Of a stretch of DNA of 64,000 nucleotides, positions 1-64,000 are shown in pieces. The first letter of the stretch is position 1, and each line of letters begins with the position of its first letter. The translations under genes and the position numbers were made by a program. The stretch spans positions 9,740,001-9,804,000 of the forward strand of contig OV121092.1 of the NCBI GenBank assembly GCA_921293015.1, given 5' to 3'. The DNA comes from Phorcus lineatus (Eukaryota; Mollusca; Gastropoda; Trochida; Trochidae). The notes beneath the pieces were generated by a model that was given only the letters and a program-made list of their open reading frames with translations, ran no database searches and was not told the origin of the DNA.

Positions 1-108
1 TTTTCTATGATCTGGCTTTTCTCAATTTGCGCGGCAACTCACCTGTTTTCTTCAAAGTGAGTATCAGTGATAATTCAAAAGAACAAATATCTAGTTTGCA
101 ACGGTCAT

Positions 109-114
109 TTTATT
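109..114 (-). terminator. Distal poly(A) signal of peptide gene 1
   Basis: AATAAA on the minus strand, 87-92 bases past the stop codon, followed by a mixed T/G-rich stretch. It is present at the same place in the other units; gene 2 keeps it in an AAATAAA context. Confidence 0.65.
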
Positions 115-200
115 CAAATAGCTGTTTGTTTCACTTTTTCTTGACTGTCTGACAGAAAAGATGCAATCTGCTGTGCTGACAGGGGAAAGTTTAATCACTT

Positions 201-551
201 TCATCCGTGGTGACCCTTTCCTCCTTTACCCCCGTGGCCCTTTCCACCATGTCCTTTGCCTCCACCGTGACCTTTGCCTCCACCACGTCCTTTTCCTCCA
301 CCACGACCTTTTCCCCCTCCACGGCCCTTGCCTCCTCCTCCTCTTCCGCCGTGTCCAGCCATGGTAGTCCCAAATACGGCAGCAAGAACTGTAAGAGAAA
401 TTTCATGAGTAAGTGAAAATGAGTAAAATCGTTGAGATATTGTTGTACAAATCAAAATGTCATATACACATCTGATAAAAGAAAATTGGACCCAAACATG
501 TCCAATACACAAACCTGCTAAAACAAGGAGGGTGATGGTGAAAATCTGCAT
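201..551 (-). CDS. Secreted Gly/Lys/Arg/His-rich cationic peptide, gene 1 (reference copy)
   Basis: Two exons: 515-551 (ATG, 37 nt) and 201-388. They are separated by a 126-nt intron (389-514) with a GTTTGT donor after CAG and the acceptor TTTCTCTTACAG. The spliced product has 74 residues. Residues 1-23 form a signal peptide with a hydrophobic core TLLVLAVLAAVFG and a likely cut after TTMA. Residues 24-74 are the mature peptide: three RGGGKG repeats, then HGGGKG and HGGKG repeats, ending GHHG. It has 12 Lys/Arg, 6 His, 33 Gly, no Cys and no acidic residue. I do not recognise a named family. A structural or adhesive protein, an antimicrobial peptide or a metal-binding secretory peptide would all fit the composition. 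The final Gly could in principle be an amidation donor. The intron reading is supported by the signal peptide formed across the junction, by both splice sites, and by a stop codon in the intron of gene 26. Function unknown. Confidence 0.85.
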   Translation of the reverse strand: MQIFTITLLVLAGLCIGHVWVQFSFIRCVYDILICTTISQRFYSFSLTHEISLTVLAAVFGTTMAGHGGRGGGGKGRGGGKGRGGGKGRGGGKGHGGGKGHGGKGHGGKGGKGHHG

Positions 552-610
552 ATTGATGTCTGTTCCTTGCTTCTGGTAGAATGCAATGAAAGAGTCGGAG
601 TTGACTTTGT

Positions 611-618
611 CTTTTATA
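611..618 (-). promoter_or_regulatory. TATA box of peptide gene 1
   Basis: TATAAAAG on the minus strand, 60-67 bases upstream of the A of the ATG. An initiator-like TTTCATTGC puts the likely start of transcription at about 587, 31 bases downstream of the first T of the TATA box. This gives a 5' UTR of about 36 bases. The same TATA box is kept at the same distance in the copies I inspected, including the truncated unit at 33.3 kb. Gene 4 has a changed initiator (TCATCGC). Confidence 0.75.
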
Positions 619-1479
619 GAAATCTCTCAGCATGAAAGATATGGCAATAACCTGTGGCACACCTCTATCATAGCGATTATGACTTCATATGGAGATATAT
701 CTTAATCACTGCACTTTTTCCAAAATGCAGCGTTCTTCTTTTTCAGACATGATGTTTCCTAATTAAATGACTCCATGCTGTGATCTCACTTGAGTCCAGA
801 CAGAATGTCTTTCATCATTCTTACGCTAGAAACACTCACATTGGTCATTGAGGCCATGGAGTAGGGGTATTATCTTTTCGTTTAAGTGTTTAAAGTTACA
901 GAATATTTCTTTCCAAGTTTAGCCAAACTATTAACAAAAAAACGTATGTCAAAACTAAATATTACAATCGATTTCTGATTTCAAACTGTCAAATTTCTTT
1001 TCAGGTCAATGTCAGGTGCCAGTTGATAGTATGGACATGACACTGATACTTTTTGACAAATCAAAGAGTACACAAACTTTGTAAAATCACTATGGTCATA
1101 TGACTTCCGCACCTTTTTTTAACACATCATTTATGGTTTTCTAATTGTAAATTAACAGGGGCTCGTTTTGTTTTATTAGCGCCAAATGCGTCACCATCTA
1201 TCAAAGTAAAGAGCGTCTGATGTAGGTTTCTTGATGAAATGCTAGGAATAGATTGATAAATGCATGCTTTGTTTAGGAATTCTACTGCAGATATAATGTT
1301 CAATGTCCTTGTATTATAAAGGGTTAGGAATGGATTGGTTGTTTGTGAAATGGGCTTGGTAAGGTCAAAGTAGACTTCTTGAAGAACTTTAATACTGCCT
1401 TGCTAGTCCAAGTTAAACAGGACTTTTACATACAGACCACATGTTAGTTTTCATTATTTGTCATTTCACCATTTGAGTG
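619..1479. other. Spacer upstream of peptide gene 1 (reference for all units)
   Basis: No credible coding exon is visible. On the minus strand close to the TATA box are a CATATG E-box (near 690) and GATA-like TGATAG (near 670), both of unproven use. A plus-strand TATAAA at 1315-1320 (in ATTATAAAGGG) is kept in most units and could be a promoter element for plus-strand transcription. The rest is AT-rich spacer. Open frames across it start at GTG or TTG and look like shadows. Confidence 0.5.
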
Positions 1480-2395: not shown

Positions 2396-2746
2396 TCATC
2401 CGTGGTGACCCTTTCCTCCTTTACCCCCGTGGCCCTTTCCACCATGTCCTTTGCCTCCACCGTGACCTTTGCCTCCACCACGTCCTTTTCCTCCACCACG
2501 ACCTTTTCCCCCTCCACGGCCCTTGCCTCCTCCTCCTCTTCCGCCGTGTCCAGCCATGGTAGTCCCAAATACGGCAGCAAGAACTGTAAGAGAAATTTCA
2601 TGAGTAAGTGAAAATGAGTAAAATCGTTGAGATATTGTTGTACAAATCAAAATGTCATATACACATCTGATAAAAGAAAATTGGACCCAAACATGTCCAA
2701 TACACAAACCTGCTAAAACAAGGAGGGTGATGGTGAAAATCTGCAT
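2396..2746 (-). CDS. Gly-rich cationic secreted peptide, gene 2
   Basis: Exons 2710-2746 and 2396-2583. The predicted 74-residue peptide is identical to that of gene 1. The base after the stop region differs from gene 1 (GTTAAATC in place of GTTTAATC on the plus strand), a state shared with gene 4. Confidence 0.85.
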   Translation of the reverse strand: MQIFTITLLVLAGLCIGHVWVQFSFIRCVYDILICTTISQRFYSFSLTHEISLTVLAAVFGTTMAGHGGRGGGGKGRGGGKGRGGGKGRGGGKGHGGGKGHGGKGHGGKGGKGHHG

Positions 2747-4589: not shown

Positions 4590-4940
4590 TCATCCGTGGT
4601 GACTCTTTCCTCCTTTACCCCCGTGGCCCTTTCCACCATGTCCTTTGCCTCCACCGTGACCTTTGCCTCCACCACGTCCTTTTCCTCCACCACGACCTTT
4701 TCCCCCTCCACGGCCCTTGCCTCCTCCTCCTCTTCCGCCGTGTCCAGCCATGGTAGTCCCAAATACGGCAGCAAGAACTGTAAGAGAAATTTCATGAGTA
4801 AGTGAAAATGAGTAAAATCGTTGAGATATTGTTGTACAAATCAAAATGTCATATACACATCTGATAAAAGAAAATTGGACCCAAACATGTCCAATACACA
4901 AACCTGCTAAAACAAGGAGGGTGATGGTGAAAATCTGCAT
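4590..4940 (-). CDS. Gly-rich cationic secreted peptide, gene 3 (G71S)
   Basis: Exons 4904-4940 and 4590-4777. One residue differs from gene 1: Gly71 becomes Ser near the C terminus (GGT to AGT). Confidence 0.85.
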   Translation of the reverse strand: MQIFTITLLVLAGLCIGHVWVQFSFIRCVYDILICTTISQRFYSFSLTHEISLTVLAAVFGTTMAGHGGRGGGGKGRGGGKGRGGGKGRGGGKGHGGGKGHGGKGHGGKGGKSHHG

Positions 4941-6783: not shown

Positions 6784-7134
6784 TCATCCGTGGTGACCCT
6801 TTCCTCCTTTACCCCCGTGGCCCTTTCCACCATGTCCTTTGCCTCCACCGTGACCTTTGCCTCCACCACGTCCTTTTCCTCCACCACGACCTTTTCCCCC
6901 TCCACGGCCCTTGCCTCCTCCTCCTCTTCCGCCGTGTCCAGCCATGGTAGTCCCAAATACGGCAGCAAGAACTGTAAGAGAAATTTCATGAGTAAGTGAA
7001 AATGAGTAAAATCGTTGAGATATTGTTGTACAAATCAAAATGTCATATACACATCTGATAAAAGAAAATTGGACCCAAACATGTCCAATACACAAACCTG
7101 CTAAAACAAGGAGGGTGATGGTGAAAATCTGCAT
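6784..7134 (-). CDS. Gly-rich cationic secreted peptide, gene 4
   Basis: Exons 7098-7134 and 6784-6971. Peptide as gene 1. The initiator region reads TCATCGC instead of TCATTGC. Its flanks match gene 2 at several variant sites, 4388 bases away. Confidence 0.85.
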   Translation of the reverse strand: MQIFTITLLVLAGLCIGHVWVQFSFIRCVYDILICTTISQRFYSFSLTHEISLTVLAAVFGTTMAGHGGRGGGGKGRGGGKGRGGGKGRGGGKGHGGGKGHGGKGHGGKGGKGHHG

Positions 7135-8977: not shown

Positions 8978-9328
8978 TCATCCGTGGTGACCCTTTCCTC
9001 CTTTACCCCCGTGGCCCTTTCCACCATGTCCTTTGCCTCCACCGTGACCTTTGCCTCCACCACGTCCTTTTCCTCCACCACGACCTTTTCCCCCTCCACG
9101 GCCCTTGCCTCCTCCTCCTCTTCCGCCGTGTCCAGCCATGGTAGTCCCAAATACGGCAGCAAGAACTGTAAGAGAAATTTCATGAGTAAGTGAAAATGAG
9201 TAAAATCGTTGAGATATTGTTGTACAAATCAAAATGTCATATACACATCTGATAAAAGAAAATTGGACCCAAACATGTCCAATACACAAACCTGCTAAAA
9301 CAAGGAGGGTGATGGTGAAAATCTGCAT
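8978..9328 (-). CDS. Gly-rich cationic secreted peptide, gene 5
   Basis: Exons 9292-9328 and 8978-9165. Peptide as gene 1. The spacer upstream carries the 170-bp deletion at about 9,660, more than 300 bases from the TATA box, so the core promoter is intact. Confidence 0.85.
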   Translation of the reverse strand: MQIFTITLLVLAGLCIGHVWVQFSFIRCVYDILICTTISQRFYSFSLTHEISLTVLAAVFGTTMAGHGGRGGGGKGRGGGKGRGGGKGRGGGKGHGGGKGHGGKGHGGKGGKGHHG

Positions 9329-9656: not shown

Positions 9657-9661
9657 GTTTT
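9657..9661. other. 170-bp deletion junction in the spacer
   Basis: 'cttttcg' is joined to 'tttgacaaatcaaag' at a short T-run. The same two segments are about 170 bases further apart in neighbouring units (for example about 7,466 and 7,637). T-run microhomology points to a simple deletion. Confidence 0.85.
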
Positions 9662-11002: not shown

Positions 11003-11353
11003 TCATCCGTGGTGACCCTTTCCTCCTTTACCCCCGTGGCCCTTTCCACCATGTCCTTTGCCTCCACCGTGACCTTTGCCTCCACCACGTCCTTTTCCTC
11101 CACCACGACCTTTTCCCCCTCCACGGCCCTTGCCTCCTCCTCCTCTTCCGCCGTGTCCAGCCATGGTAGTCCCAAATACGGCAGCAAGAACTGTAAGAGA
11201 AATTTCATGAGTAAGTGAAAATGAGTAAAATCGTTGAGATATTGTTGTACAAATCAAAATGTCATATACACATCTGATAAAAGAAAATTGGACCCAAACA
11301 TGTCCAATACACAAACCTGCTAAAACAAGGAGGGTGATGGTGAAAATCTGCAT
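11003..11353 (-). CDS. Gly-rich cationic secreted peptide, gene 6
   Basis: Exons 11317-11353 and 11003-11190. Peptide as gene 1. Its 3' UTR (CTTTGTTGACAGG on the plus strand) begins the second subgroup of subfamily A. Confidence 0.85.
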   Translation of the reverse strand: MQIFTITLLVLAGLCIGHVWVQFSFIRCVYDILICTTISQRFYSFSLTHEISLTVLAAVFGTTMAGHGGRGGGGKGRGGGKGRGGGKGRGGGKGHGGGKGHGGKGHGGKGGKGHHG

Positions 11354-13197: not shown

Positions 13198-13566
13198 TCA
13201 TCCGTGGTGACCCTTTCCTCCTTTACCCCCGTGGCCCTTTCCACCATGTCCTTTGCCTCCACCGTGACCTTTGCCTCCACCGTGACCTTTGCCTCCACCA
13301 CGTCCTTTTCCTCCACCACGACCTTTTCCCCCTCCACGGCCCTTGCCTCCTCTTCCTCTTCCGCCGTGTCCAGCCATGGTAGTCCCAAATACGGCAGCAA
13401 GAACTGTAAGAGAAATTTCATGAGTAAGTGAAAATGAGTAAAATCGTTGAGATATTGTTGTACAAATCAAAATGTCATATACACATCTGATAAAAGAAAA
13501 TTGGACCCAAACATGTCCAATACACAAACCTGCTAAAACAAGGAGGGTGATGGTGAAAATCTGCAT
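13198..13566 (-). CDS. Gly-rich cationic secreted peptide, gene 7, expanded to 80 residues
   Basis: Exons 13530-13566 and 13198-13403. One extra 18-bp repeat adds a GHGGGK block to the His-rich half, and Gly30 becomes Arg. The frame is kept. Confidence 0.85.
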   Translation of the reverse strand: MQIFTITLLVLAGLCIGHVWVQFSFIRCVYDILICTTISQRFYSFSLTHEISLTVLAAVFGTTMAGHGGRGRGGKGRGGGKGRGGGKGRGGGKGHGGGKGHGGGKGHGGKGHGGKGGKGHHG

Positions 13567-15402: not shown

Positions 15403-15771
15403 TCATCCGTGGTGACCCTTTCCTCCTTTACCCCCGTGGCCCTTTCCACCATGTCCTTTGCCTCCACCGTGACCTTTGCCTCCACCGTGACCTTTGCCTC
15501 CACCACGTCCTTTTCCTCCACCACGACCTTTTCCCCCTCCACGGCCCTTGCCTCCTCTTCCTCTTCCGCCGTGTCCAGCCATGGTAGTCCCAAATACGGC
15601 AGCAAGAACTGTAAGAGAAATTTCATGAGTAAGTGAAAATGAGTAAAATCGTTGAGATATTGTTGTACAAATCAAAATGTCATATACACATCTGATAAAA
15701 GAAAATTGGACCCAAACATGTCCAATACACAAACCTGCTAAAACAAGGAGGGTGATGGTGAAAATCTGCAT
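15403..15771 (-). CDS. Gly-rich cationic secreted peptide, gene 8, expanded to 80 residues
   Basis: Exons 15735-15771 and 15403-15608. It has the same 18-bp expansion and Gly30Arg as gene 7, so the two copies share a recent origin or a conversion event. Confidence 0.85.
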   Translation of the reverse strand: MQIFTITLLVLAGLCIGHVWVQFSFIRCVYDILICTTISQRFYSFSLTHEISLTVLAAVFGTTMAGHGGRGRGGKGRGGGKGRGGGKGRGGGKGHGGGKGHGGGKGHGGKGHGGKGGKGHHG

Positions 15772-17590: not shown

Positions 17591-17941
17591 TCATCCGTGG
17601 TGACCCTTTCCTCCTTTACCCCCGTGGCCCTTTCCACCATGTCCTTTGCCTCCACCGTGACCTTTGCCTCCACCACGTCCTTTTCCTCCACCACGACCTT
17701 TTCCCCCTCCACGGCCCTTGCCTCCTCCTCCTCTTCCGCCGTGTCCAGCCATGGTAGTCCCAAATACGGCAGCAAGAACTGTAAGAGAAATTTCATGAGT
17801 AAGTGAAAATGAGTAAAATCGTTGAGATATTGTTGTACAAATCAAAATGTCATATACACATCTGATAAAAGAAAATTGGACCCAAACATGTCCAATACAC
17901 AAACCTGCTAAAACAAGGAGGGTGATGGTGAAAATCTGCAT
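17591..17941 (-). CDS. Gly-rich cationic secreted peptide, gene 9
   Basis: Exons 17905-17941 and 17591-17778. Standard 74-residue peptide. The upstream flank shares private variants with gene 7 (GTGTCACACC, TTTTTCCCAAATG on the plus strand). Confidence 0.85.
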   Translation of the reverse strand: MQIFTITLLVLAGLCIGHVWVQFSFIRCVYDILICTTISQRFYSFSLTHEISLTVLAAVFGTTMAGHGGRGGGGKGRGGGKGRGGGKGRGGGKGHGGGKGHGGKGHGGKGGKGHHG

Positions 17942-19777: not shown

Positions 19778-20128
19778 TCATCCGTGGTGACCCTTTCCTC
19801 CTTTACCCCCGTGGCCCTTTCCACCATGTCCTTTGCCTCCACCGTGACCTTTGCCTCCACCACGTCCTTTTCCTCCACCACGACCTTTTCCCCCTCCACG
19901 GCCCTTGCCTCCTCCTCCTCTTCCGCCGTGTCCAGCCATGGTAGTCCCAAATACGGCAGCAAGAACTGTAAGAGAAATTTCATGAGTAAGTGAAAATGAG
20001 TAAAATCGTTGAGATATTGTTGTACAAATCAAAATGTCATATACACATCTGATAAAAGAAAATTGGACCCAAACATGTCCAATACACAAACCTGCTAAAA
20101 CAAGGAGGGTGATGGTGAAAATCTGCAT
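19778..20128 (-). CDS. Gly-rich cationic secreted peptide, gene 10
   Basis: Exons 20092-20128 and 19778-19965. Standard peptide. Genes 10-13 share a TGTTTCTTGC state in the 5' UTR region. Confidence 0.85.
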   Translation of the reverse strand: MQIFTITLLVLAGLCIGHVWVQFSFIRCVYDILICTTISQRFYSFSLTHEISLTVLAAVFGTTMAGHGGRGGGGKGRGGGKGRGGGKGRGGGKGHGGGKGHGGKGHGGKGGKGHHG

Positions 20129-21964: not shown

Positions 21965-22315
21965 TCATCCGTGGTGACCCTTTCCTCCTTTACCCCCGTG
22001 GCCCTTTCCACCATGTCCTTTGCCTCCACCGTGACCTTTGCCTCCACCACGTCCTTTTCCTCCACCACGACCTTTTCCCCCTCCACGGCCCTTGCCTCCT
22101 CCTCCTCTTCCGCCGTGTCCAGCCATGGTAGTCCCAAATACGGCAGCAAGAACTGTAAGAGAAATTTCATGAGTAAGTGAAAATGAGTAAAATCGTTGAG
22201 ATATTGTTGTACAAATCAAAATGTCATATACACATCTGATAAAAGAAAATTGGACCCAAACATGTCCAATACACAAACCTGCTAAAACAAGGAGGGTGAT
22301 GGTGAAAATCTGCAT
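21965..22315 (-). CDS. Gly-rich cationic secreted peptide, gene 11
   Basis: Exons 22279-22315 and 21965-22152. Standard peptide. The unit is close to that of gene 10, including TTAATTACTGC in the upstream spacer. Confidence 0.85.
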   Translation of the reverse strand: MQIFTITLLVLAGLCIGHVWVQFSFIRCVYDILICTTISQRFYSFSLTHEISLTVLAAVFGTTMAGHGGRGGGGKGRGGGKGRGGGKGRGGGKGHGGGKGHGGKGHGGKGGKGHHG

Positions 22316-24150: not shown

Positions 24151-24501
24151 TCATCCGTGGTGACCCTTTCCTCCTTTACCCCCGTGGCCCTTTCCACCAT
24201 GTCCTTTGCCTCCACCGTGACCTTTGCCTCCACCACGTCCTTTTCCTCCACCACGACCTTTTCCCCCTCCACGGCCCTTGCCTCCTCCTCCTCTTCCGCC
24301 GTGTCCAGCCATGGTAGTCCCAAATACGGCAGCAAGAACTGTAAGAGAAATTTCATGAGTAAGTGAAAATGAGTAAAATCGTTGAGATATTGTTGTACAA
24401 ATCAAAATGTCATATACACATCTGATAAAAGAAAATTGGACCCAAACATGTCCAATACACAAACCTGCTAAAACAAGGAGGGTGATGGTGAAAATATGCA
24501 T
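24151..24501 (-). CDS. Gly-rich cationic secreted peptide, gene 12 (Q2H)
   Basis: Exons 24465-24501 and 24151-24338. Residue 2 of the signal peptide is His instead of Gln (CAG to CAT). The mature part is unchanged. Confidence 0.85.
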   Translation of the reverse strand: MHIFTITLLVLAGLCIGHVWVQFSFIRCVYDILICTTISQRFYSFSLTHEISLTVLAAVFGTTMAGHGGRGGGGKGRGGGKGRGGGKGRGGGKGHGGGKGHGGKGHGGKGGKGHHG

Positions 24502-26337: not shown

Positions 26338-26688
26338 TCATCCGTGGTGACCCTTTCCTCCTTTACCCCCGTGGCCCTTTCCACCATGTCCTTTGCCTCC
26401 ACCGTGACCTTTGCCTCCACCACGTCCTTTTCCTCCACCACGACCTTTTCCCCCTCCACGGCCCTTGCCTCCTCCTCCTCTTCCGCCGTGTCCAGCCATG
26501 GTAGTCCCAAATACGGCAGCAAGAACTGTAAGAGAAATTTCATGAGTAAGTGAAAATGAGTAAAATCTTTGAGATATTGTTGTACAAATCAAAATGTCAT
26601 ATACACATCTGATAAAAGAAAATTGGACCCAAACATGTCCAATACACAAACCTGCTAAAACAAGGAGGGTGATGGTGAAAATCTGCAT
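26338..26688 (-). CDS. Gly-rich cationic secreted peptide, gene 13
   Basis: Exons 26652-26688 and 26338-26525. Standard peptide. There is one intron substitution (AATCTTTGAG on the plus strand). Confidence 0.85.
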   Translation of the reverse strand: MQIFTITLLVLAGLCIGHVWVQFSFIRCVYDILICTTISQRFYSFSLTHEISLTVLAAVFGTTMAGHGGRGGGGKGRGGGKGRGGGKGRGGGKGHGGGKGHGGKGHGGKGGKGHHG

Positions 26689-28523: not shown

Positions 28524-28874
28524 TCATCCGTGGTGACCCTTTCCTCCTTTACCCCCGTGGCCCTTTCCACCATGTCCTTTGCCTCCACCGTGACCTTTGC
28601 CTCCACCACGTCCTTTTCCTCCACCACGACCTTTTCCCCCTCCACGGCCCTTGCCTCCTCCTCCTCTTCCGCCGTGTCCAGCCATGGTAGTCCCAAATAC
28701 GGCAGCAAGAACTGTAAGAGAAATTTCATGAGTAAGTGAAAATGAGTAAAATCGTTGAGATATTGTTGTACAAATCAAAATGTCATATACACATCTGATA
28801 AAAGAAAATTGGACCCAAACATGTCCAATACACAAACCTGCTAAAACAAGGAGGGTGATGGTGAAAATCTGCAT
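28524..28874 (-). CDS. Gly-rich cationic secreted peptide, gene 14
   Basis: Exons 28838-28874 and 28524-28711. Standard peptide. This is the last subfamily A gene. Its promoter is intact (TATAAAAG), and the insert begins about 375 bases upstream of its ATG. Confidence 0.85.
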   Translation of the reverse strand: MQIFTITLLVLAGLCIGHVWVQFSFIRCVYDILICTTISQRFYSFSLTHEISLTVLAAVFGTTMAGHGGRGGGGKGRGGGKGRGGGKGRGGGKGHGGGKGHGGKGHGGKGGKGHHG

Positions 28875-29772
28875 ATTGATGTCTGTTCCTTGCTTCTGGT
28901 AGAATGCAATGAAAGAGTCGGAGTTGACTTTGTCTTTTATAGAAATGTCTCAGCATGAAAGATATGGCAATAACCTGTGGCACACCTCTATCATAGCGAT
29001 TATGACTTCATATGGAGAAATATCTTAATCACTGCACTTTTTCCCAAATGCAGCGTTCTTCTTTTTCAGACATGATGTTTCCTAATTAAATGACTTCATG
29101 CTGTGATCTCACTTGAGTCGAGACAGAATGTCTTTCATCATTCTTACGCTAGAAACACTCACATTGGTCATTGAGGCCAGGGGGTAGGGGTATTATCTTT
29201 TCGTTTAAGTGCTTAAAGTTACAGAATATTTCTTTCTAAGTTTAGCCATAGATTGATAAAAAGGTTTATTAAATCAAATGAAACGATTGTAGTCTTTGTG
29301 AAGTTACCAATTTTGAAACATTGTCAGATACATTTTATTTGTTAAACGCATTGAATTCATATATCTAAGACGAAACGAGAGGAAGCGTTATTATAAACAC
29401 TTATGTACATTTGTTCATAAATCATTTGATAAGAATTTGAGGCTATTGAAAGTTAGACTTTGATTTTAACTTTACTTCTTGAATGCATCAATGTCCTGTA
29501 ACAATAATAGTTTTAGCATGCACGTGGGTTTTTTTAACTTCTACAATATCCTTCATAGATCCACGACCCTGTCTGCCATTGAAATGATACATGCACATGT
29601 TAAATTATTAGAGTTGACAACGTCCCAACAGAATAAATCACTTGGTCAATATTAATAATCATTACATTCGTTAATGTTACATGCTTTCTCTTAAATCGGG
29701 ATATCATCTCTATAAATCCTTAATTATAATTCAGATAGTTGAAATACCGACACACCGTATCTACTCAACACG

Positions 29773-30111
29773 ATGTCTAGATATGCAGTATTTGTATTTA
29801 CAAATGAAAATGCATATAAATCAACGTATGTGAAAATACTCTTTGAGCATGTTTATGAATTGAAATGGGAAAAACCGCAAAATATCAACCCAAAGGTGAA
29901 ATATCACATGTTATATTCATGTAAAGTATCAATATCCAGCACCTGCATCTATCTGCACGAAACTATAAAACAATCAAGACTTTATGGCACAAGGCTAGAC
30001 AGTGTCCGGTCAACTATGGCCCTCAAAGGCCCCCGCGAAGAGACGGGGTTCTTTGAGCTAATTGGTTTCGCGATAGCGAGGAGTGTCTGTGGTCAGTGGC
30101 CCAGGCGTTGA
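29773..30111 (+). CDS. Unrecognised 112-codon open frame inside the insert
   Basis: It starts at a real ATG (MSRYAVFVF...) and ends in the GC-rich end of the insert. I recognise no domain or signal peptide. Its last third runs through the hairpin-forming terminal sequence, which suggests a chance frame or a chimeric remnant rather than a gene. Confidence 0.15.
   Translation: MSRYAVFVFTNENAYKSTYVKILFEHVYELKWEKPQNINPKVKYHMLYSCKVSISSTCIYLHETIKQSRLYGTRLDSVRSTMALKGPREETGFFELIGFAIARSVCGQWPRR
30022..30057. repeat. Hairpin near the right end of the insert
   Basis: Arms CTCAAAGGCCCCCG (30022-30035) and CGGGGTTCTTTGAG (30044-30057) pair over 14 positions, with two G-T pairs, around an 8-base loop. 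This is consistent with the folded end of a non-autonomous element. Confidence 0.6.
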
Positions 30112-30992
30112 GCCGTGAAGCTGTCTCGGCGTTAATGAGTTAACAAAAAAACGTATGTCAAAATTAAATATTACAATCGATTTCTGATTTGAAACTGTCA
30201 AATTTCTTTTCAGATCAATGTCAGATGCCAGTTGATAGTATGGACATGACACTGATACTTTTTGACAAATCAAAGAGTACACAAACTTTGTAAAATCACT
30301 ATGGTCATATGACTTCCGCACTTTTTTTTAACACATCATTTATGGTTTTCTAATTGTAAATTAACAGGGGCTTGTTTTGTTTTATTAGCGCCAAATGCGT
30401 CACCATCTATCAAAGTAAAGAGCGTCTGATGTAGGTTTCTTGATGAAATGCTAGGAATAGATTGATAAATGCATGCTTTGTCTAGGAATGCTACTGCAGA
30501 TATAATATTCAATGTCCTTGTATTATAAAGGGTTAGGAATGGATTGGTTGTTTGTGAAATGGGCTTGGTAAGGTCAAAGTAGACTTCTTGAAGAACTTTA
30601 ATACTGCCTTGCTAGTCCACGTTAAACAGGACTTTTACATACAGACCACATGTTAGTTTTCATTATTTGTCATTTCACCATTTGAGTGTGACTCATTAAT
30701 CACTTTGGCTGTGATTGTTCAAGACTGAAGGGAAACGTGGCTTTGCTAGTTTCTTTACAACCACAGACAGACCACTGACGCAACAGAGGAAGATTTGGCA
30801 CGAATGCGAAGCCAGTGTGACGTCACCTCAAATATTGCAATTTCCTTGTTGCATATTTTTTTCTTCAACAAACCGTCTTGATTTAGTAACACTTATCATG
30901 GTCGACAAAGGCTGTATTTTAATGAGGAACGTATTTGATTTTGACTCTTTTAGCATACGCGGCACATTACTGAAGTAGTTGAAAAGTATGCA

Positions 30993-35189: not shown

Positions 35190-35540
35190 TCATCCGTGGT
35201 GACCCTTTCCTCCTTTACCCCCGTGGCCCTTTCCACCATGTCCTTTGCCTCCACCGTGACCTTTGCCTCCACCACGTCCTTTTCCTCCACCACGACCTTT
35301 TCCCCCTCCACGGCCCTTGCCTCCTCCTCCTCTTCCGCCGTGTCCAGCCATGGTAGTCCCAAATACGGCAGCAAGAACTGTAAGAGAAATTTCATGAGTA
35401 AGTGAAAATAAGTAAAATCGTTGAGATATTGTTGTACAAATCAAAATGTCATATACACATCTGATAAAAGAAAATTGGACCCAAACATGTCCAATACACA
35501 AACCTGCTAAAACAAGAAGGGTGATGGTGAAAATCTGCAT
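35190..35540 (-). CDS. Gly-rich cationic secreted peptide, gene 17
   Basis: Exons 35504-35540 and 35190-35377. Standard peptide, with the proximal AATAAA present. Confidence 0.85.
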   Translation of the reverse strand: MQIFTITLLVLAGLCIGHVWVQFSFIRCVYDILICTTISQRFYLFSLTHEISLTVLAAVFGTTMAGHGGRGGGGKGRGGGKGRGGGKGRGGGKGHGGGKGHGGKGHGGKGGKGHHG

Positions 35541-37384: not shown

Positions 37385-37735
37385 TCATCCGTGGTGACCC
37401 TTTCCTCCTTTACCCCCGTGGCCCTTTCCACCATGTCCTTTGCCTCCACCGTGACCTTTGCCTCCACCACGTCCTTTTCCTCCACCACGACCTTTTCCCC
37501 CTCCACGGCCCTTGCCTCCTCCTCCTCTTCCGCCGTGTCCAGCCATGGTAGTCCCAAATACGGCAGCAAGAACTGTAAGAGAAATTTCATGAGTAAGTGA
37601 AAATAAGTAAAATCGTTGAGATATTGTTGTACAAATCAAAATGTCATATACACATCTGATAAAAGAAAATTGGACCCAAACATGTCCAATACACAAACCT
37701 GCTAAAACAAGAAGGGTGATGGTGAAAATCTGCAT
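37385..37735 (-). CDS. Gly-rich cationic secreted peptide, gene 18
   Basis: Exons 37699-37735 and 37385-37572. Standard peptide. Its unit pairs with that of gene 21, 6586 bases away, through private variants in both flanks. Confidence 0.85.
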   Translation of the reverse strand: MQIFTITLLVLAGLCIGHVWVQFSFIRCVYDILICTTISQRFYLFSLTHEISLTVLAAVFGTTMAGHGGRGGGGKGRGGGKGRGGGKGRGGGKGHGGGKGHGGKGHGGKGGKGHHG

Positions 37736-39579: not shown

Positions 39580-39930
39580 TCATCCGTGGTGACCCTTTCC
39601 TCCTTTACCCCCGTGGCCCTTTCCACCATGTCCTTTGCCTCCACCGTGACCTTTGCCTCCACCACGTCCTTTTCCTCCACCACGACCTTTTCCCCCTCCA
39701 CGGCCCTTGCCTCCTCCTCCTCTTCCGCCGTGTCCAGCCATGGTAGTCCCAAATACGGCAGCAAGAACTGTAAGAGAAATTTCATGAGTAAGTGAAAATG
39801 AGTAAAATCGTTGAGATATTGTCGTACAAATCAAAATGTCATATACACATCTGATAAAAGAAAATTGGACCCAAACATGTCCAATACACAAACCTGCTAA
39901 AACAAGAAGGGTGATGGTGAAAATCTGCAT
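39580..39930 (-). CDS. Gly-rich cationic secreted peptide, gene 19
   Basis: Exons 39894-39930 and 39580-39767. Standard peptide. The intron carries TATTGTCGTAC, shared with genes 20, 22-24 and 26. Confidence 0.85.
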   Translation of the reverse strand: MQIFTITLLVLAGLCIGHVWVQFSFIRCVYDILICTTISQRFYSFSLTHEISLTVLAAVFGTTMAGHGGRGGGGKGRGGGKGRGGGKGRGGGKGHGGGKGHGGKGHGGKGGKGHHG

Positions 39931-41775: not shown

Positions 41776-42126
41776 TCATCCGTGGTGACCCTTTCCTCCT
41801 TTACCCCCGTGGCCCTTTCCACCATGTCCTTTGCCTCCACCGTGACCTTTGCCTCCACCACGTCCTTTTCCTCCACCACGACCTTTTCCCCCTCCACGGC
41901 CCTTGCCTCCTCCTCCTCTTCCGCCGTGTCCAGCCATGGTAGTCCCAAATACGGCAGCAAGAACTGTAAGAGAAATTTCATGAGTAAGTGAAAATGAGTA
42001 AAATCGTTGAGATATTGTCGTACAAATCAAAATGTCATATACACATCTGATAAAAGAAAATTGGACCCAAACATGTCCAATACACAAACCTGCTAAAACA
42101 AGAAGGGTGATGGTGAAAATCTGCAT
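41776..42126 (-). CDS. Gly-rich cationic secreted peptide, gene 20
   Basis: Exons 42090-42126 and 41776-41963. Standard peptide, with the same intron state as gene 19. Confidence 0.85.
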   Translation of the reverse strand: MQIFTITLLVLAGLCIGHVWVQFSFIRCVYDILICTTISQRFYSFSLTHEISLTVLAAVFGTTMAGHGGRGGGGKGRGGGKGRGGGKGRGGGKGHGGGKGHGGKGHGGKGGKGHHG

Positions 42127-43970: not shown

Positions 43971-44321
43971 TCATCCGTGGTGACCCTTTCCTCCTTTACC
44001 CCCGTGGCCCTTTCCACCATGTCCTTTGCCTCCACCGTGACCTTTGCCTCCACCACGTCCTTTTCCTCCACCACGACCTTTTCCCCCTCCACGGCCCTTG
44101 CCTCCTCCTCCTCTTCCGCCGTGTCCAGCCATGGTAGTCCCAAATACGGCAGCAAGAACTGTAAGAGAAATTTCATGAGTAAGTGAAAATAAGTAAAATC
44201 GTTGAGATATTGTTGTACAAATCAAAATGTCATATACACATCTGATAAAAGAAAATTGGACCCAAACATGTCCAATACACAAACCTGCTAAAACAAGAAG
44301 GGTGATGGTGAAAATCTGCAT
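43971..44321 (-). CDS. Gly-rich cationic secreted peptide, gene 21
   Basis: Exons 44285-44321 and 43971-44158. Standard peptide. The counterpart of gene 18 in the trimeric duplication. Confidence 0.85.
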   Translation of the reverse strand: MQIFTITLLVLAGLCIGHVWVQFSFIRCVYDILICTTISQRFYLFSLTHEISLTVLAAVFGTTMAGHGGRGGGGKGRGGGKGRGGGKGRGGGKGHGGGKGHGGKGHGGKGGKGHHG

Positions 44322-46165: not shown

Positions 46166-46516
46166 TCATCCGTGGTGACCCTTTCCTCCTTTACCCCCGT
46201 GGCCCTTTCCACCATGTCCTTTGCCTCCACCGTGACCTTTGCCTCCACCACGTCCTTTTCCTCCACCACGACCTTTTCCCCCTCCACGGCCCTTGCCTCC
46301 TCCTCCTCTTCCGCCGTGTCCAGCCATGGTAGTCCCAAATACGGCAGCAAGAACTGTAAGAGAAATTTTATGAGTAAGTGAAAATGAGTAAAATCGTTGA
46401 GATATTGTCGTACAAATCAAAATGTCATATACACATCTGATAAAAGAAAATTGGACCGAAACATGTCCAATACACAAACCTGCTAAAACAAGAAGGGTGA
46501 TGGTGAAAATCTGCAT
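46166..46516 (-). CDS. Gly-rich cationic secreted peptide, gene 22
   Basis: Exons 46480-46516 and 46166-46353. Standard peptide. Two intron substitutions (Trp to Ser and Glu to Lys if the intron were read through) show that the intron frame is free to change. Confidence 0.85.
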   Translation of the reverse strand: MQIFTITLLVLAGLCIGHVSVQFSFIRCVYDILICTTISQRFYSFSLTHKISLTVLAAVFGTTMAGHGGRGGGGKGRGGGKGRGGGKGRGGGKGHGGGKGHGGKGHGGKGGKGHHG

Positions 46517-48361: not shown

Positions 48362-48712
48362 TCATCCGTGGTGACCCTTTCCTCCTTTACCCCCGTGGCC
48401 CTTTCCACCATGTCCTTTGCCTCCACCGTGACCTTTGCCTCCACCACGTCCTTTTCCTCCACCACGACCTTTTCCCCCTCCACGGCCCTTGCCTCCTCCT
48501 CCTCTTCCGCCGTGTCCAGCCATGGTAGTCCCAAATACGGCAGCAAGAACTGTAAGAGAAATTTCATGAGTAAGTGAAAATGAGTAAAATCGTTGAGATA
48601 TTGTCGTACAAATCAAAATGTCATATACACATCTGATAAAAGAAAATTGGACCCAAACATGTCCAATACACAAACCTGCTAAAACAAGAAGGGTGATGGT
48701 GAAAATCTGCAT
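48362..48712 (-). CDS. Gly-rich cationic secreted peptide, gene 23
   Basis: Exons 48676-48712 and 48362-48549. Standard peptide. Its unit is almost the same as those of genes 19 and 24. Confidence 0.85.
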   Translation of the reverse strand: MQIFTITLLVLAGLCIGHVWVQFSFIRCVYDILICTTISQRFYSFSLTHEISLTVLAAVFGTTMAGHGGRGGGGKGRGGGKGRGGGKGRGGGKGHGGGKGHGGKGHGGKGGKGHHG

Positions 48713-50557: not shown

Positions 50558-50908
50558 TCATCCGTGGTGACCCTTTCCTCCTTTACCCCCGTGGCCCTTT
50601 CCACCATGTCCTTTGCCTCCACCGTGACCTTTGCCTCCACCACGTCCTTTTCCTCCACCACGACCTTTTCCCCCTCCACGGCCCTTGCCTCCTCCTCCTC
50701 TTCCGCCGTGTCCAGCCATGGTAGTCCCAAATACGGCAGCAAGAACTGTAAGAGAAATTTCATGAGTAAGTGAAAATGAGTAAAATCGTTGAGATATTGT
50801 CGTACAAATCAAAATGTCATATACACATCTGATAAAAGAAAATTGGACCCAAACATGTCCAATACACAAACCTGCTAAAACAAGAAGGGTGATGGTGAAA
50901 ATCTGCAT
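50558..50908 (-). CDS. Gly-rich cationic secreted peptide, gene 24
   Basis: Exons 50872-50908 and 50558-50745. Standard peptide, with the proximal AATAAA present. Confidence 0.85.
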   Translation of the reverse strand: MQIFTITLLVLAGLCIGHVWVQFSFIRCVYDILICTTISQRFYSFSLTHEISLTVLAAVFGTTMAGHGGRGGGGKGRGGGKGRGGGKGRGGGKGHGGGKGHGGKGHGGKGGKGHHG

Positions 50909-52753: not shown

Positions 52754-53104
52754 TCATCCGTGGTGACCCTTTCCTCCTTTACCCCCGTGGCCCTTTCCAC
52801 CATGTCCTTTGCCTCCACCGTGACCTTTGCCTCCACCACGTCCTTTTCCTCCACCACGACCTTTTCCCCCTCCACGGCCCTTGCCTCCTCCTCCTCTTCC
52901 GCCGTGTCCAGCCATGGTAGTCCCAAATACGGCAGCAAGAACTGTAAGAGAAATTTTATGAGTAAGTGAAAATGAGTAAAATCGTTGAGATATTGTTGTA
53001 CAAATCAAAATGTCATATACACATCTGATAAAAGAAAATTGGACCCAAACATGTCCAATACACAAACCTGCTAAAACAAGAAGGGTGATGGTGAAAATCT
53101 GCAT
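52754..53104 (-). CDS. Gly-rich cationic secreted peptide, gene 25
   Basis: Exons 53068-53104 and 52754-52941. Standard peptide. The acceptor-side intron has ATAAAATTTC in place of ATGAAATTTC, as in genes 22 and 27; the AG is intact. Confidence 0.85.
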   Translation of the reverse strand: MQIFTITLLVLAGLCIGHVWVQFSFIRCVYDILICTTISQRFYSFSLTHKISLTVLAAVFGTTMAGHGGRGGGGKGRGGGKGRGGGKGRGGGKGHGGGKGHGGKGHGGKGGKGHHG

Positions 53105-54956: not shown

Positions 54957-55307
54957 TCATCCGTGGTGACCCTTTCCTCCTTTACCCCCGTGGCCCTTTC
55001 CACCATGTCCTTTGCCTCCACCGTGACCTTTGCCTCCACCACGTCCTTTTCCTCCACCACGACCTTTTCCCCCTCCACGGCCCTTGCCTCCTCCTCCTCT
55101 TCCGCCGTGTCCAGCCATGGTAGTCCCAAATACGGCAGCAAGAACTGTAAGAGAAATTTCATGAGTAAGTGAAAATGAGTAAAATCGTTAAAATATTGTC
55201 GTACAAATCAAAATGTCATATACACATCTGATAAAAGAAAATTGGACCCAAACATGTCCAATACACAAACCTGCTAAAACAAGAAGGGTGATGGTGAAAA
55301 TCTGCAT
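54957..55307 (-). CDS. Gly-rich cationic secreted peptide, gene 26 (stop codon within intron)
   Basis: Exons 55271-55307 and 54957-55144. The spliced peptide is standard. Two G-to-A changes on the plus strand place TAA at 55188-55190, in frame with exon 1. An unspliced message would stop after 39 codons, while the spliced gene is untouched. This is the best internal evidence that 55145-55270 is an intron. Confidence 0.87.
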
Positions 55308-57152: not shown

Positions 57153-57503
57153 TCATCCGTGGTGACCCTTTCCTCCTTTACCCCCGTGGCCCTTTCCACC
57201 ATGTCCTTTGCCTCCACCGTGACCTTTGCCTCCACCACGTCCTTTTCCTCCACCACGACCTTTTCCCCCTCCACGGCCCTTGCCTCCTCCTCCTCTTCCG
57301 CCGTGTCCAGCCATGGTAGTCCCAAATACGGCAGCAAGAACTGTAAGAGAAATTTTATGAGTAAGTGAAAATGAGTAAAATCGTTGAGATATTGTTGTAC
57401 AAATCAAAATGTCATATACACATCTGATAAAAGAAAATTGGACCCAAACATGTCCAATACACAAACCTGCTAAAACAAGAAGGGTGATGGTGAAAATCTG
57501 CAT
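57153..57503 (-). CDS. Gly-rich cationic secreted peptide, gene 27
   Basis: Exons 57467-57503 and 57153-57340. Standard peptide. The base context of the distal poly(A) signal is changed (CGGAAATTTTATT on the plus strand), but AATAAA is kept. Confidence 0.85.
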   Translation of the reverse strand: MQIFTITLLVLAGLCIGHVWVQFSFIRCVYDILICTTISQRFYSFSLTHKISLTVLAAVFGTTMAGHGGRGGGGKGRGGGKGRGGGKGRGGGKGHGGGKGHGGKGHGGKGGKGHHG

Positions 57504-59355: not shown

Positions 59356-59706
59356 TCATCCGTGGTGACCCTTTCCTCCTTTACCCCCGTGGCCCTTTCC
59401 ACCATGTCCTTTGCCTCCACCGTGACCTTTGCCTCCACCACGTCCTTTTCCTCCACCACGACCTTTTCCCCCTCCACGGCTCTTGCCTCCTCCTCCTCTT
59501 CCGCCGTGTCCAGCCATGGTAGTCCCAAATACGGCAGCAAGAACTGTAAGAGAAATTTCATGAGTAAGTGAAAATAAGTAAAATCGTTGAGATATTGTTG
59601 TACAAATCAAAATGTCATATACACATCTGATAAAAGAAAATTGGACCCAAACATGTCCAATACACAAACCTGCTAAAACAAGAAGGGTGATGGTGAAAAT
59701 CTGCAT
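59356..59706 (-). CDS. Gly-rich cationic secreted peptide, gene 28 (G34S)
   Basis: Exons 59670-59706 and 59356-59543. Gly34 becomes Ser in the first repeat (GGC to AGC). The proximal AATAAA is mutated to AATGAA. Confidence 0.85.
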   Translation of the reverse strand: MQIFTITLLVLAGLCIGHVWVQFSFIRCVYDILICTTISQRFYLFSLTHEISLTVLAAVFGTTMAGHGGRGGGGKSRGGGKGRGGGKGRGGGKGHGGGKGHGGKGHGGKGGKGHHG

Positions 59707-61490: not shown

Positions 61491-61545
61491 CACTTTATCT
61501 TGACTGTCTGACAGAAAACATTCAATCTGCTTTGTTGACAGGGGA
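61491..61545. other. Subfamily A sequence patch inside a B unit
   Basis: The stretch reads CACTTTATC, CTGACAGAAAACATTC and CTTTGTTGACAGGGG like genes 7-9, whereas neighbouring B units read GACTTTATC, CTGTCAGAAAAGATAC and CTGTGCCGACAGGG. Flanking sequence on both sides is of B type, so this looks like a short gene-conversion tract. Confidence 0.65.
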
Positions 61546-61559
61546 AAGTTTATTCACTT

Positions 61560-61910
61560 TCATCCGTGGTGACCCTTTCCTCCTTTACCCCCGTGGCCCT
61601 TTCCACCATGTCCTTTGCCTCCACCGTGACCTTTGCCTCCACCACGTCCTTTTCCTCCACCACGACCTTTTCCCCCTCCACGGCCCTTGCCTCCTCCTCC
61701 TCTTCCGCCGTGTCCAGCCATGGTAGTCCCAAATACGGCAGCAAGAACTGTAAGAGAAATTTCATGAGTAAGTGAAAATGAGTAAAATCGTTGAGATATT
61801 GTTGTACAAATCAAAATGTCATATACACATCTGATAAAAGAAAATTGGACCCAAACATGTCCAATACACAAACCTGCTAAAACAAGAAGGGTGATGGTGA
61901 AAATCTGCAT
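61560..61910 (-). CDS. Gly-rich cationic secreted peptide, gene 29
   Basis: Exons 61874-61910 and 61560-61747. Standard peptide. The 3' UTR is a mosaic: the proximal AATAAA is of B type, but the next 55 bases or so are of A type. Confidence 0.85.
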   Translation of the reverse strand: MQIFTITLLVLAGLCIGHVWVQFSFIRCVYDILICTTISQRFYSFSLTHEISLTVLAAVFGTTMAGHGGRGGGGKGRGGGKGRGGGKGRGGGKGHGGGKGHGGKGHGGKGGKGHHG

Positions 61911-63763
61911 ATTGATGTCTGTTCCTTGCTTCTGGTAGACTGCAATGAAAGAGTCGGAGTTGACTTTGTCTTTTATAGAAATCTCTCAGCATGAAAGATA
62001 TGGCAATAACCTGTGGCACACCTCTATCATAGCGATTATGACTTCATATGGAGATATATCTTAATCACTGCACTTTTTCCCAAATGCAGCGTTCTTCTTC
62101 TTCAGACATGATGTTTCCTAATTAAATGACTCCATGCTGTGATCTCACATGAGTCGAGACAGAATGTCTTTCATCATTCTTACGCTAGAAACACTCACAT
62201 TGGTCATTGAGGCCAGGGGGTAGGGGTATTATCTTTTCGTTTAAATGTTTAAAGTTACAGAATATCTCTTTCCAAGTTCAGCGAAACTATTAACAAAAAA
62301 ACGTATGTCAAAATTAAATATTACAATCGATTTCTGATTTGAAACTGTCAAATTTCTTTTCATCTTTTCAGATCAATGTCAGATGCCAGTTGATAGTATG
62401 GACATGACACTGATACTTTTTGACAAATCAAAGAGTACACAAACATTATAAAATCACTATGGTCATATGACTTCCGCACCTTTTTTTTAACACATCATTT
62501 ATGGTTTTCTAATTGTAAATTAACAGGGGCTCGTTTTGTTTTATTAGCGCCAAATGCGTCACCATCTATCAAAGTAAAGAGCGTCTGATGTAGGTTTCTT
62601 GATGAAATGCTAGGAATAGATTGATAAATGCATGCTTTGTTTAGGAATTCTACTGCAGATATAATATTCAATGTCCTTGTATTATAAAGGGTTAGGAATG
62701 GATTGGTTGTTTGTGAAATGGGCTTGGTAAGGTCAAAGTAGACTTCTTGAAGAACTTTAATACTGCCTTGCTAGTCCAAGTTAAACAGGACTTTTACATA
62801 CAGACCACATGTTAGTTTTCATTATTTGTCATTTCACCATTTGAGTGTGACTCATTAATCACTTTGGCTGTGATTGTTCAAGACTGAAGGGAAACGTGGC
62901 TTTGCTAGTTTCTTTACAACCAGAGACAGACCACTGACGCAACAGAGGAAGATTTGGCACGAATGCGAAGCCAGTGTGACGTCACCTCAAATATTGCAAT
63001 TTCCTTGTTGCATATTTTTTTCTTCAACAAACCGTCTTGATTTAGTAACACTTATCATGGTCGACAAAGGCTGTATTTTAATGAGGAACGTATTTGATTT
63101 TGACTCTTTTAGCATACGCGGCACATTACTGAAGTAGTTGAAAAGTATGCAATGGCGTTGGATCCTTTTAAAGTGAAAATAGTTCTTCATGGCACTGATA
63201 TCAACAGTAGGTAAGTTTTCAAACCCGACACTGAAAGTGTGCACACCTAAAACAGTTTAGATAATGCAACATAGACTTGGAATGAAATTTCTTTTCTTAG
63301 TTTTCATTTCAGTAAATGGCGATCAAACCTGTTTCTTAGATTTATGCCAATTGTGTTATTTAGATTTGTTGGTTCATTTGGTGAAACATAATCGTGGTTG
63401 AGTAGAAAGACATCATAAGGGAGGTATTCAAAGTTCAAATTTACAGCTTGATTTCTTTTCTGAGATGATGCAAAACCACCCTTGACATGATGATTCATTT
63501 GAGTAAACCTACAGTTTTCAGCGTGAATCTTGAATTGGTCACTGGATATAGCATGTTTTTGTCTTTTCTATGATTTGGCTTTTCTCAGTTTGAGGAGCAA
63601 CTCACCTATTTTCTTCAAAGTGAGTATCAGTGATAATTCAAAACATACAAATATCTAGTTTGCAACGGTCATTTTATTCAAATAGCTGTTTGTTTGACTT
63701 TATCTTGACTGTCTGTCAGAAAAGATACAATCCGTTCTGCCGACAGGGAAAGTTTATTCACTT

Positions 63764-63951
63764 TCATCCGTGGTGACCCTTTCCTCCTTTACCCCCGTGG
63801 CCCTTTCCACCATGTCCTTTGCCTCCACCGTGACCTTTGCCTCCACCACGTCCTTTTCCTCCACCACGACCTTTTCCCCCTCCACGGCCCTTGCCTCCTC
63901 CTCCTCTTCCGCCGTGTCCAGCCATGGTAGTCCCAAATACGGCAGCAAGAA
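63764..63951 (-). CDS. Gly-rich cationic secreted peptide, gene 30 (partial, exon 2 only in window)
   Basis: Exon 2 is complete and standard. The acceptor lies at 63952-63953. Exon 1 and the promoter would lie just beyond the right edge of the window, with the ATG expected near 64,114. The array therefore continues. Confidence 0.85.
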
Positions 63952-64000
63952 CTGTAAGAGAAATTTCATGAGTAAGTGAAAATAAGTAAAATCGTTGAGA

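What the first reader, a model, noticed from the sequence alone, without database searches (positions are those of the whole stretch)
1..64000. Dosage-type tandem amplification of an unrecognised secreted peptide gene
At least 28 complete, apparently functional copies encode nearly one peptide. In the mature part I see only G71S, G34S, G30R and one in-frame 18-bp expansion, while spacers carry many more changes. Multi-copy arrays of a small secreted gene usually serve very high output (silks, antifreeze peptides, venom or slime proteins, antimicrobial peptides). I know no named family that matches this Gly/Lys/Arg/His peptide.
Basis: partly seen in the sequence, partly recalled or inferred. 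Interest (0 to 1): 0.8.

Follow-up and report, generated by a model that had tools for sequence, protein, structure and literature searches.

The report
Tandem arrays of Gly/His peptide genes
A genome that is probably a snail's carries a block of about fifty near-identical genes for one tiny secreted glycine-rich, positively charged peptide, and a second, larger block of related glycine-histidine peptide genes on another contig, which suggests very high output of an undescribed secreted material or defence peptide.

Summary
The window has 28 complete two-exon genes (23 encode the identical 74-aa preprotein), one truncated copy and one cut by the edge. The assembly shows the whole array: 114.6 kb on contig C19, 52 first and 51 second exons. 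Over 49 full units 217 of 1969 noncoding sites vary, against 5 of 225 coding sites. Internal GKG[R/H]GG repeats differ mostly at synonymous sites.

New here: a second array on contig C5, spanning 256 kb (100 kb read). Its 2.76-kb unit holds two head-to-head relatives: a Gly/His/Arg peptide (28 of 28 products identical) and a nearly pure (Gly-His)n peptide (27 genes, whose coding sites vary as much as spacers). All three types share a 37-nt first coding exon, a phase-1 intron, similar signal peptides and the ending HHG-stop. A flanking receptor is closest to Haliotis (51%), so the host is probably a gastropod.

I infer a high-output secreted family, most likely a pH- and metal-responsive matrix or mucus component; an antimicrobial role is the main rival. 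Expression is untested.

The parts
201..551 (-). Complete type A gene: exon 1 515-551, 126-nt intron 389-514, exon 2 with stop 201-388
611..619 (-). TATA box CTATAAAAG, 68 nt upstream of the ATG; found in 52 of 52 first-exon copies of the whole array
109..114 (-). AATAAA polyadenylation signal 86 nt after the stop; found in 51 of 52 copies of the whole array (the truncated copy has none)
2396..2746 (-). Complete type A gene
4590..4940 (-). Complete type A gene, G71S
6784..7134 (-). Complete type A gene
8978..9328 (-). Complete type A gene
11003..11353 (-). Complete type A gene
13198..13566 (-). Complete type A gene, G30R and in-frame 18-bp expansion (80 aa)
15403..15771 (-). Complete type A gene, G30R and in-frame 18-bp expansion (80 aa)
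17591..17941 (-). Complete type A gene
19778..20128 (-). Complete type A gene
21965..22315 (-). Complete type A gene
24151..24501 (-). Complete type A gene, Q2H in the signal peptide
26338..26688 (-). Complete type A gene
28524..28874 (-). Complete type A gene (synonymous Leu8 marker CTC from here to the left end, CTT to the right)
29249..30140 (.). About 0.9-kb non-array sequence that replaces a few bases of the spacer in one unit; mobile-element-like, unidentified; boundaries read by eye, approximate
31569..31919 (-). Complete type A gene
33210..33346 (-). Truncated copy: exon 1 and part of the intron, exon 2 deleted (left boundary read by eye)
35190..35540 (-). Complete type A gene
37385..37735 (-). 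Complete type A gene
39580..39930 (-). Complete type A gene
41776..42126 (-). Complete type A gene
43971..44321 (-). Complete type A gene
46166..46516 (-). Complete type A gene
48362..48712 (-). Complete type A gene
50558..50908 (-). Complete type A gene
52754..53104 (-). Complete type A gene
54957..55307 (-). Complete type A gene with a stop codon in the otherwise open intron; argues that the 74-aa spliced form and not the 116-aa read-through is the product
57153..57503 (-). Complete type A gene
59356..59706 (-). Complete type A gene, G34S
61560..61910 (-). Complete type A gene
63764..63951 (-). Exon 2 of a gene whose exon 1 lies just outside the window (ATG at C19:9804114)

Best explanation
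The window is part of a 114.6-kb tandem array of a two-exon gene with a TATA box for a small, apparently secreted peptide. A putative signal peptide of about 23 aa is followed by a 51-aa mature chain made only of Gly (33), Lys (8), His (6) and Arg (4), built on GKG[R/H]GG repeats. It is one of at least two independent arrays of one gene family in a probably gastropod genome. Shown by sequence: the array, the gene structure, the homogenised product, the second array with two relatives, and the shared exon-1 length, intron phase, signal-peptide similarity and HHG end. Inferred: unequal crossing-over and gene conversion keep copies alike, and copy number was selected for very high output in a secretory tissue. 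Inferred further: the peptides work as disordered polycations whose histidines change charge between an acidic secretory granule and the outside (seawater, if the host is marine) and bind Zn or Cu. They would be packed with acidic polymers and would set or stiffen an extruded material (mucus or adhesive gel, egg coat, periostracum, radula or shell matrix).
For: 51 complete genes in the full array, 50 with both canonical splice sites; 42 of those 50 products are identical. TATA box in 52 of 52 copies, AATAAA in 51 of 52. In 49 of 51 units, 217 of 1969 noncoding sites vary, against 3 of 188 in exon 2; 0 of 1468 overlapping noncoding windows is as uniform. The 23 units beyond the window's 26 added 73 variable noncoding sites and no coding substitution, but three copies with length changes. 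All length variants are in frame: 73 aa (2), 76 (1), 80 (2). Internal hexads have pS 0.73 and pN 0.046. Unit distance rises with distance apart (Spearman 0.55, 0 of 499 permutations as high). 3'UTR haplotypes alternate strictly over 7 neighbouring units, and the 8th differs by one base from its class. 962 of 5253 site pairs fail the four-gamete test. Second array, C5:64659805-64916222: type B protein identical in 28 of 28 genes read, 0 of 213 coding sites variable against 74 of 2288 noncoding (Fisher P 0.002); type C (GH)n in 27 genes. The two units share similarity only over exon 2. Signal peptides resemble each other beyond shuffles: A-B 3 of 2000, B-C 3 of 2000, A-C 29 of 2000. Computed charge from pH 7 to 5.5: A +12 to +17, B +6 to +19.
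Against: No expression or proteome evidence was available; tissue and function are inference from composition, and the habitat is not known. The signal peptide was judged by eye. Between copies the coding changes are 4 nonsynonymous to 1 synonymous, and synonymous sites are as depleted as nonsynonymous ones (1 seen against 6.5 expected, 4 against 17.9), so homogenisation of the GC-rich exon could mimic constraint. Type C shows no coding conservation: 8 of 252 coding sites vary against 74 of 2288 noncoding (Fisher P 1.0), and I saw no TATA box in the 80 nt upstream of the one C gene displayed. Plain BLASTP of B and C is not significant (E 1.5). Copy number rests on one assembly. A Gly/His/Lys polycation would also suit an antimicrobial role.
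Confidence: 0.5

Rival explanations
1. The peptides are constitutive cationic Gly/His-rich antimicrobial peptides of mucus or blood cells, amplified for output, like other Gly-rich animal antimicrobial peptides.
For: Mature A has five GGGK tetrapeptides, like the GGGX repeats of armadillidins (PMC7017220, passages). It is strongly cationic. De novo sequenced Cornu aspersum mucus peptides are reported as similar to Gly-rich antimicrobial peptides (PMC11206429, passages).
Against: The mature chains contain no hydrophobic or aromatic residue (A; B and C), unlike acanthoscurrin with its Leu, Tyr and Val (PMC8610171, passages). Products A and B are uniform between copies, whereas immune repertoires often diversify (general knowledge).
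Confidence: 0.25
2. The array is a megasatellite expanded by recombination alone; copy number is incidental, and exon 2 is uniform because its GC-rich repeats are a gene-conversion hotspot rather than because of selection.
For: Coding changes are 4 nonsynonymous to 1 synonymous, and synonymous sites are depleted like nonsynonymous ones. Clear signs of unequal exchange. Type C coding sites vary as much as noncoding ones.
Against: The low-diversity tract ends at the stop codon (3'UTR pi 4.4% against exon 2 0.09%). Length changes keep frame; the TATA box is kept in 52 of 52 copies, splice sites in 50 of the 51 complete genes and AATAAA in 51 of 52. Paralogues were amplified separately on another contig. 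Internal repeats show old amino-acid constraint (the hexads were picked by their amino-acid pattern, which lowers pN).
Confidence: 0.12
3. Assembly artefact: one or a few copies were expanded by mis-assembly.
For: Only one assembly was seen; the closest two A units differ at about 1 site in 2.2 kb, and some C5 units are identical (minimum distance 0). One search lists no type B place in two stretches of the C5 array of about 31 and 22 kb, which were not read.
Against: In array A 0 of 1176 unit pairs are identical. Variants are ordered by position, one copy is truncated, one unit carries an insertion, and both ends join other sequence.
Confidence: 0.04
4. A reproductive role: sperm- or egg-coat basic peptides amplified for bulk packaging or fertilisation.
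For: Basic, low-complexity and multi-copy; compatible with the composition.
Against: The putative signal peptide argues against a nuclear protamine-like role (by eye); A and B do not diversify between copies.
Confidence: 0.09

Closest known systems
Silk-like structural proteins (SLSPs) of animal extracellular materials, as defined in PMC4944945 (passages read)
   Same: Apparently secreted, repetitive, glycine far above the 25% threshold (65% in mature A); recurrent lineage-specific origin, including two uncharacterised abalone proteins whose expression fits a role in the nacreous layer.
   Different: Very short (51-aa mature), no Ala blocks, only G/K/R/H; site of expression unknown; the passages seen describe no large array of identical copies.
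Molluscan mantle secretome families with repetitive low-complexity domains, KRMP and shematrin (PMC4897951, abstract part and passages read)
   Same: Lineage-restricted, duplicated, low-complexity secreted proteins of molluscs.
   Different: Those families diverge between copies. Shematrin and KRMP features that I recall, from no call (Tyr or hydrophobic residues in the repeats, basic Tyr-ending tail), are absent here.
Armadillidins, Gly-rich isopod antimicrobial peptides (PMC7017220, passages read)
   Same: Signal peptide followed by repeated GGGX tetrapeptides, Arg-rich, no defined secondary structure.
   Different: Here X is always K; aromatic residues and the RPYIGGGG start are absent; the paper states that the family is specific to terrestrial isopods.
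Nv1 neurotoxin cluster of Nematostella (PMC9842752, abstract and passages read)
   Same: Works like it at gene level: tandem near-identical copies of a small secreted gene, with singlet, duplet and quadruplet expansions and copy number that correlates with transcript and protein amount.
   Different: Unrelated protein (no cysteine here); 1-24 diploid copies there, against 51 complete genes here in one assembly plus a second array.
Gly/His-rich structural proteins of jaws and beaks, and shepherins (recalled; one paper search on a jaw protein listed nothing)
   Same: Gly-His repeats, proposed metal binding or antimicrobial action.
   Different: Recalled resemblance only; no sequence comparison was made.

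Membership tests
Silk-like structural protein (SLSP) | Glycine at least 25% in the repetitive part | tested here: met
   33 of 51 mature residues; the published window is 80 residues, longer than this chain
Silk-like structural protein (SLSP) | Secreted (signal peptide) | tested here: inconclusive
   Hydrophobic N-terminus MQIFTITLLVLAVLAAVFGTTMA judged by eye; no predictor was available
Silk-like structural protein (SLSP) | Part of an extracellular material | not testable with these tools
   No expression or proteome data
Armadillidin | Repeated GGGX tetrapeptides | tested here: met
   Five GGGK in mature A
Armadillidin | RPYIGGGG start and GGGF repeats of the Armadillidiidae consensus | tested here: not met
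   Mature chain holds only G, K, R, H; consensus
Any Pfam or NCBIfam family | Score at or above the curated cut-off | tested here: not met
   A: none. B: DUF2946 12.6 bits against 23.7, NCBIfam none. C: TrAA12-like 26.7 against 30.9 and CFAP143 12 against 27, NF033849 23.8 against 650; taken as low-complexity matches
One family A/B/C in this genome | Same first coding exon length (37 nt) and phase-1 intron | tested here: met
   A, B, C (sequence shown; products)
One family A/B/C in this genome | Signal peptide similarity beyond shuffles | tested here: met
   A-B 3, B-C 3, A-C 29 of 2000 shuffles reach the observed score; against: BLASTP of B and C gives only E 1.5
Nv1-type dosage cluster | Copy number correlates with expression | not testable with these tools
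   No reads or RNA

The most novel reading that the evidence does not exclude
A gastropod lineage has built a dedicated high-output system of at least three related micro-proteins, a Gly/Lys/Arg polycation (A), a Gly/His/Arg switch peptide (B) and an almost pure (Gly-His)n metal and proton binder (C), from two separately amplified arrays that together span about 0.37 Mb and may hold about 200 genes (51 A complete, at least 76 B, 27 C read). Their charge is tuned to change between granule and outside, so that they act as a self-setting extracellular material with no described equivalent that I found.
Probability: 0.3. Interest if true: 0.78.

Novelty: new variant of a known kind. Interest (0 to 1): 0.6.

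Why it matters
Short low-complexity secreted genes in long arrays are easily lost in annotation and in low-complexity-masked searches. Here two independent arrays of one family in one genome, with homogenised products (A and B) and drifting spacers, make a clean test case for selection on dosage against recombination-driven homogenisation; type C, which varies like its spacers, is a built-in contrast. The peptides, especially (Gly-His)n, are also minimal candidates for pH- and metal-responsive biomaterials or mucosal defence.

Tried and rejected
The 116-aa read-through (intron retained) as the product: the 126-nt intron is open in most copies, but it carries a stop in two complete copies of the array (ATG at C19:9795307, i.e. 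55307 in the window, and C19:9843641). Splicing is the simpler reading.

Purifying selection shown by N/S between copies: rejected as a claim. 4N:1S is near the neutral expectation.

First alignment with units cut 600 nt upstream of the ATG: a deletion near the cut in the reference unit gave a false invariant stretch; replaced.

A 20-codon open stretch on the plus strand of each unit looked to me like a PB1 exon; the PDB search instead gave weak ankyrin matches and Pfam nothing. Left as a note.

Other weak protein matches in the own genome (13 places): three (C12:7576672, C12:8001604, C19:9893803) were displayed in three frames, and the stretches around these and around C12:7583235 and C12:7600839 were scanned for Gly/His/Lys/Arg runs of 18 or more, with none found. 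The remaining 8, on C16 (2), C37, C9, C13, C2, C32 and C25, were not inspected.

Homologue searches gave nothing usable: 5.8 billion proteins with the spliced form and the read-through form (best E 0.05, the six sequences looked at are unrelated low-complexity ones); genome contigs (a bacterial and archaeal collection, so weak). The protein collection does hold gastropods: the flanking receptor found Haliotis at 50-51%. Rfam and tRNA scans were empty. Passages of PMC4275877 on animal adhesives were seen and not used.
Full report
What is in the window. Units of about 2.19 kb each carry one minus-strand gene: TATA box 68 nt before the ATG, a 37-nt first coding exon, a 126-nt GT-AG intron of phase 1, and a 188-nt second exon with the stop, followed by AATAAA 85-86 nt later. 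The window has 29 first exons and 29 second exons: 28 complete genes, one copy truncated in the intron (ATG 33346), and one cut by the right edge. The usual product is MQIFTITLLVLAVLAAVFGTTMA followed by 51 residues, 33 Gly, 8 Lys, 6 His, 4 Arg and nothing else. 23 of 28 products are identical.

The whole array. The window is C19:9740001-9804000 of a 957.8-Mb assembly in 74 contigs. Reading 40 kb to the left and 80 kb to the right shows that the array runs from 9739780 to about 9854366, 114.6 kb, with 52 first exons and 51 second exons; no first exon was found on the other strand. 51 genes are complete; 50 have both canonical splice sites, one (ATG 9830478) has AT in place of the acceptor AG. 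42 of the 50 products are identical; the others are 73 aa (2), 76 aa (1), 80 aa (2) and three single substitutions. At the right end a 53rd copy breaks off inside exon 2 and joins a different repeat of 48 nt (by eye). The DNA search of the whole genome had 53 first-look candidates, and all 40 that it scored lie in this array.

Is it more than chance, and is it real? In 49 of 51 inter-anchor units (a 1425-bp and a 3081-bp unit were dropped) 217 of 1969 noncoding sites vary, 5 of 225 coding sites, 3 of 188 in exon 2; none of 1468 overlapping noncoding windows of exon-2 length is as uniform. No two of the 49 units are identical (0 of 1176 pairs), and distance rises with separation (Spearman 0.55; 0 of 499 permutations reach it). 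3'UTR haplotypes are ordered along the array, alternating strictly over 7 neighbouring copies, with an eighth that differs by one base from its class. That is the footprint of stepwise unequal exchange, including two-unit steps, and speaks against a simple assembly artefact. 962 of 5253 informative site pairs fail the four-gamete test, so exchange between copies is common.

Selection or homogenisation? The five coding substitutions are 4 nonsynonymous and 1 synonymous. Against the noncoding rate, 17.9 nonsynonymous and 6.5 synonymous changes would be expected, so both classes are low. The uniform tract ends sharply at the stop codon: diversity is 0.09% in exon 2 and 4.4% in the next 110 nt. 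Constraint on the peptide is visible on an older scale. The six internal GKG[R/H]GG hexads differ at 73% of synonymous sites and 4.6% of nonsynonymous sites; the hexads were chosen by their amino-acid pattern, which lowers pN by construction, but the synonymous divergence shows that they are old.

A second array. Searching the own genome with the protein (140 matches) gave the 52 places of this array and the partial 53rd copy, 74 places on contig C5 between 64659805 and 64916048, mostly about 2.75 kb apart (counted), and 13 weak ones elsewhere. I read C5:64840001-64940000. Each unit of about 2.76 kb there holds two genes head to head; in the six shown the ATGs are about 842 nt apart where a partner follows. 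Type B, minus strand, 70 aa, mature part Gly 28, His 18, Arg 5: 28 genes, all 28 products identical, 0 of 213 coding sites variable against 74 of 2288 noncoding in the 26 of 27 units aligned (a 2061-bp unit was dropped). Type C, plus strand, 81-87 aa, (Gly-His)n with rare Gly or Arg replacements: 27 genes, 15 of them the same 85-aa product, length changing mostly by Gly-His steps. Type C does not show the coding uniformity of A and B: 8 of 252 coding sites vary, the same rate as noncoding. One search listed 26 of the 28 type B genes in the part read, so 74 is a lower bound and at least 76 exist. The left 180 kb were not read; one search lists nothing in two stretches there, about 31 kb (64681745-64712719) and 22 kb (64759525-64781467), so the array may be interrupted.

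One family. A, B and C all have a first coding exon of exactly 37 nt, a phase-1 intron inside the signal peptide, a start MQ, a mature part that begins GHGG or HGHGG, and the end HHG-stop. Signal peptides resemble each other more than shuffles (3, 29 and 3 of 2000 for A-B, A-C and B-C), although plain BLASTP of B and C is not significant (E 1.5). DNA similarity between the two units is confined to exon 2, so two paralogous loci were amplified separately.

Which animal. Left of the array lie plus-strand ORFs with ankyrin and BRCT domains, which I take for a BARD1-like gene (the name is recalled); right of it a somatomedin-B/7tm_2 receptor. The receptor's best relatives among 7 matches are Haliotis proteins at 50-51% identity, so the host is probably a gastropod, perhaps a vetigastropod, and probably not Haliotis itself. 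The species is not known to me.

What it most likely does. Shown: many intact, uniform A genes with intact promoter and processing signals. Inferred: bulk secretion. The mature chains have no hydrophobic, aromatic, acidic or cysteine residues, so I expect no fold and no simple membrane-lytic mode. Computed net charge goes from +12 (pH 7) to +17 (pH 5.5) for A and from +6 to +19 for B, and His-rich chains bind Zn and Cu (general knowledge). My preferred mechanism is storage as a charged complex in an acidic granule and setting on release, as part of mucus, glue, egg coat, periostracum, radula or shell matrix. The abalone precedent for uncharacterised Gly-rich secreted proteins with expression fitting the nacreous layer is in PMC4944945 (passages), and the mantle secretome is rich in such low-complexity proteins (PMC4897951, passages). 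The Gly-rich antimicrobial alternative stays open (PMC7017220 and PMC11206429, passages). The gene-level analogue is the Nv1 cluster of Nematostella, where copy number correlates with transcript and protein (PMC9842752, abstract and passages).

Limits. No RNA, reads or proteomes were available; the signal peptide was judged by eye; the homologue null is weak for a low-complexity query, and B and C were not searched that way. Ten paper searches listed no paper on this array or peptide, judged by titles and abstract starts.

Noticed in passing
G000:C5:64659805-64916222 (read: L021-L028): Second array, about 2.76-kb units with two head-to-head genes per unit (Gly/His/Arg type B and (Gly-His)n type C), paralogous to the window's gene; left 180 kb not read, two stretches there without a listed match.
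   Followed up: partly
window 1784-1842 and the same place in other units, + strand: Open 20-codon stretch ending at a GT splice-donor-like site, reading MALDSFKVKIVLHGTDINSR; weak ankyrin-like match only. 1 of 59 sites varied in the first alignment. Possibly an exon fragment carried along in the unit.
   Followed up: partly
window 29249-30140: About 0.9-kb foreign segment in one unit, mobile-element-like, no Pfam match above cut-off for the one ORF tested; it lies near the truncated copy and at the boundary between the two sub-families of units (Leu8 CTT or CTC).
   Followed up: partly
3'UTR of each unit, e.g. window 100-200: Diversity in the 110 nt after the stop is 4.4% (49 units) against 0.9-1.9% in the other noncoding parts: distinct 3'UTR haplotypes in blocks, unexplained; perhaps old haplotypes spread by conversion.
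   Followed up: partly
L018:366-790: The array's right end joins a 48-nt tandem repeat whose frame reads LLPDMTTASPAPDDT-like units (by eye).
   Followed up: no
L020:1719-3144 (C19:9875719-9877144): Another tandem repeat, open in several frames on both strands.
   Followed up: no
C19:9830478 (- strand gene, in L015): One copy has AT in place of AG at the intron acceptor; intron retention would give an in-frame 116-aa product.
   Followed up: partly
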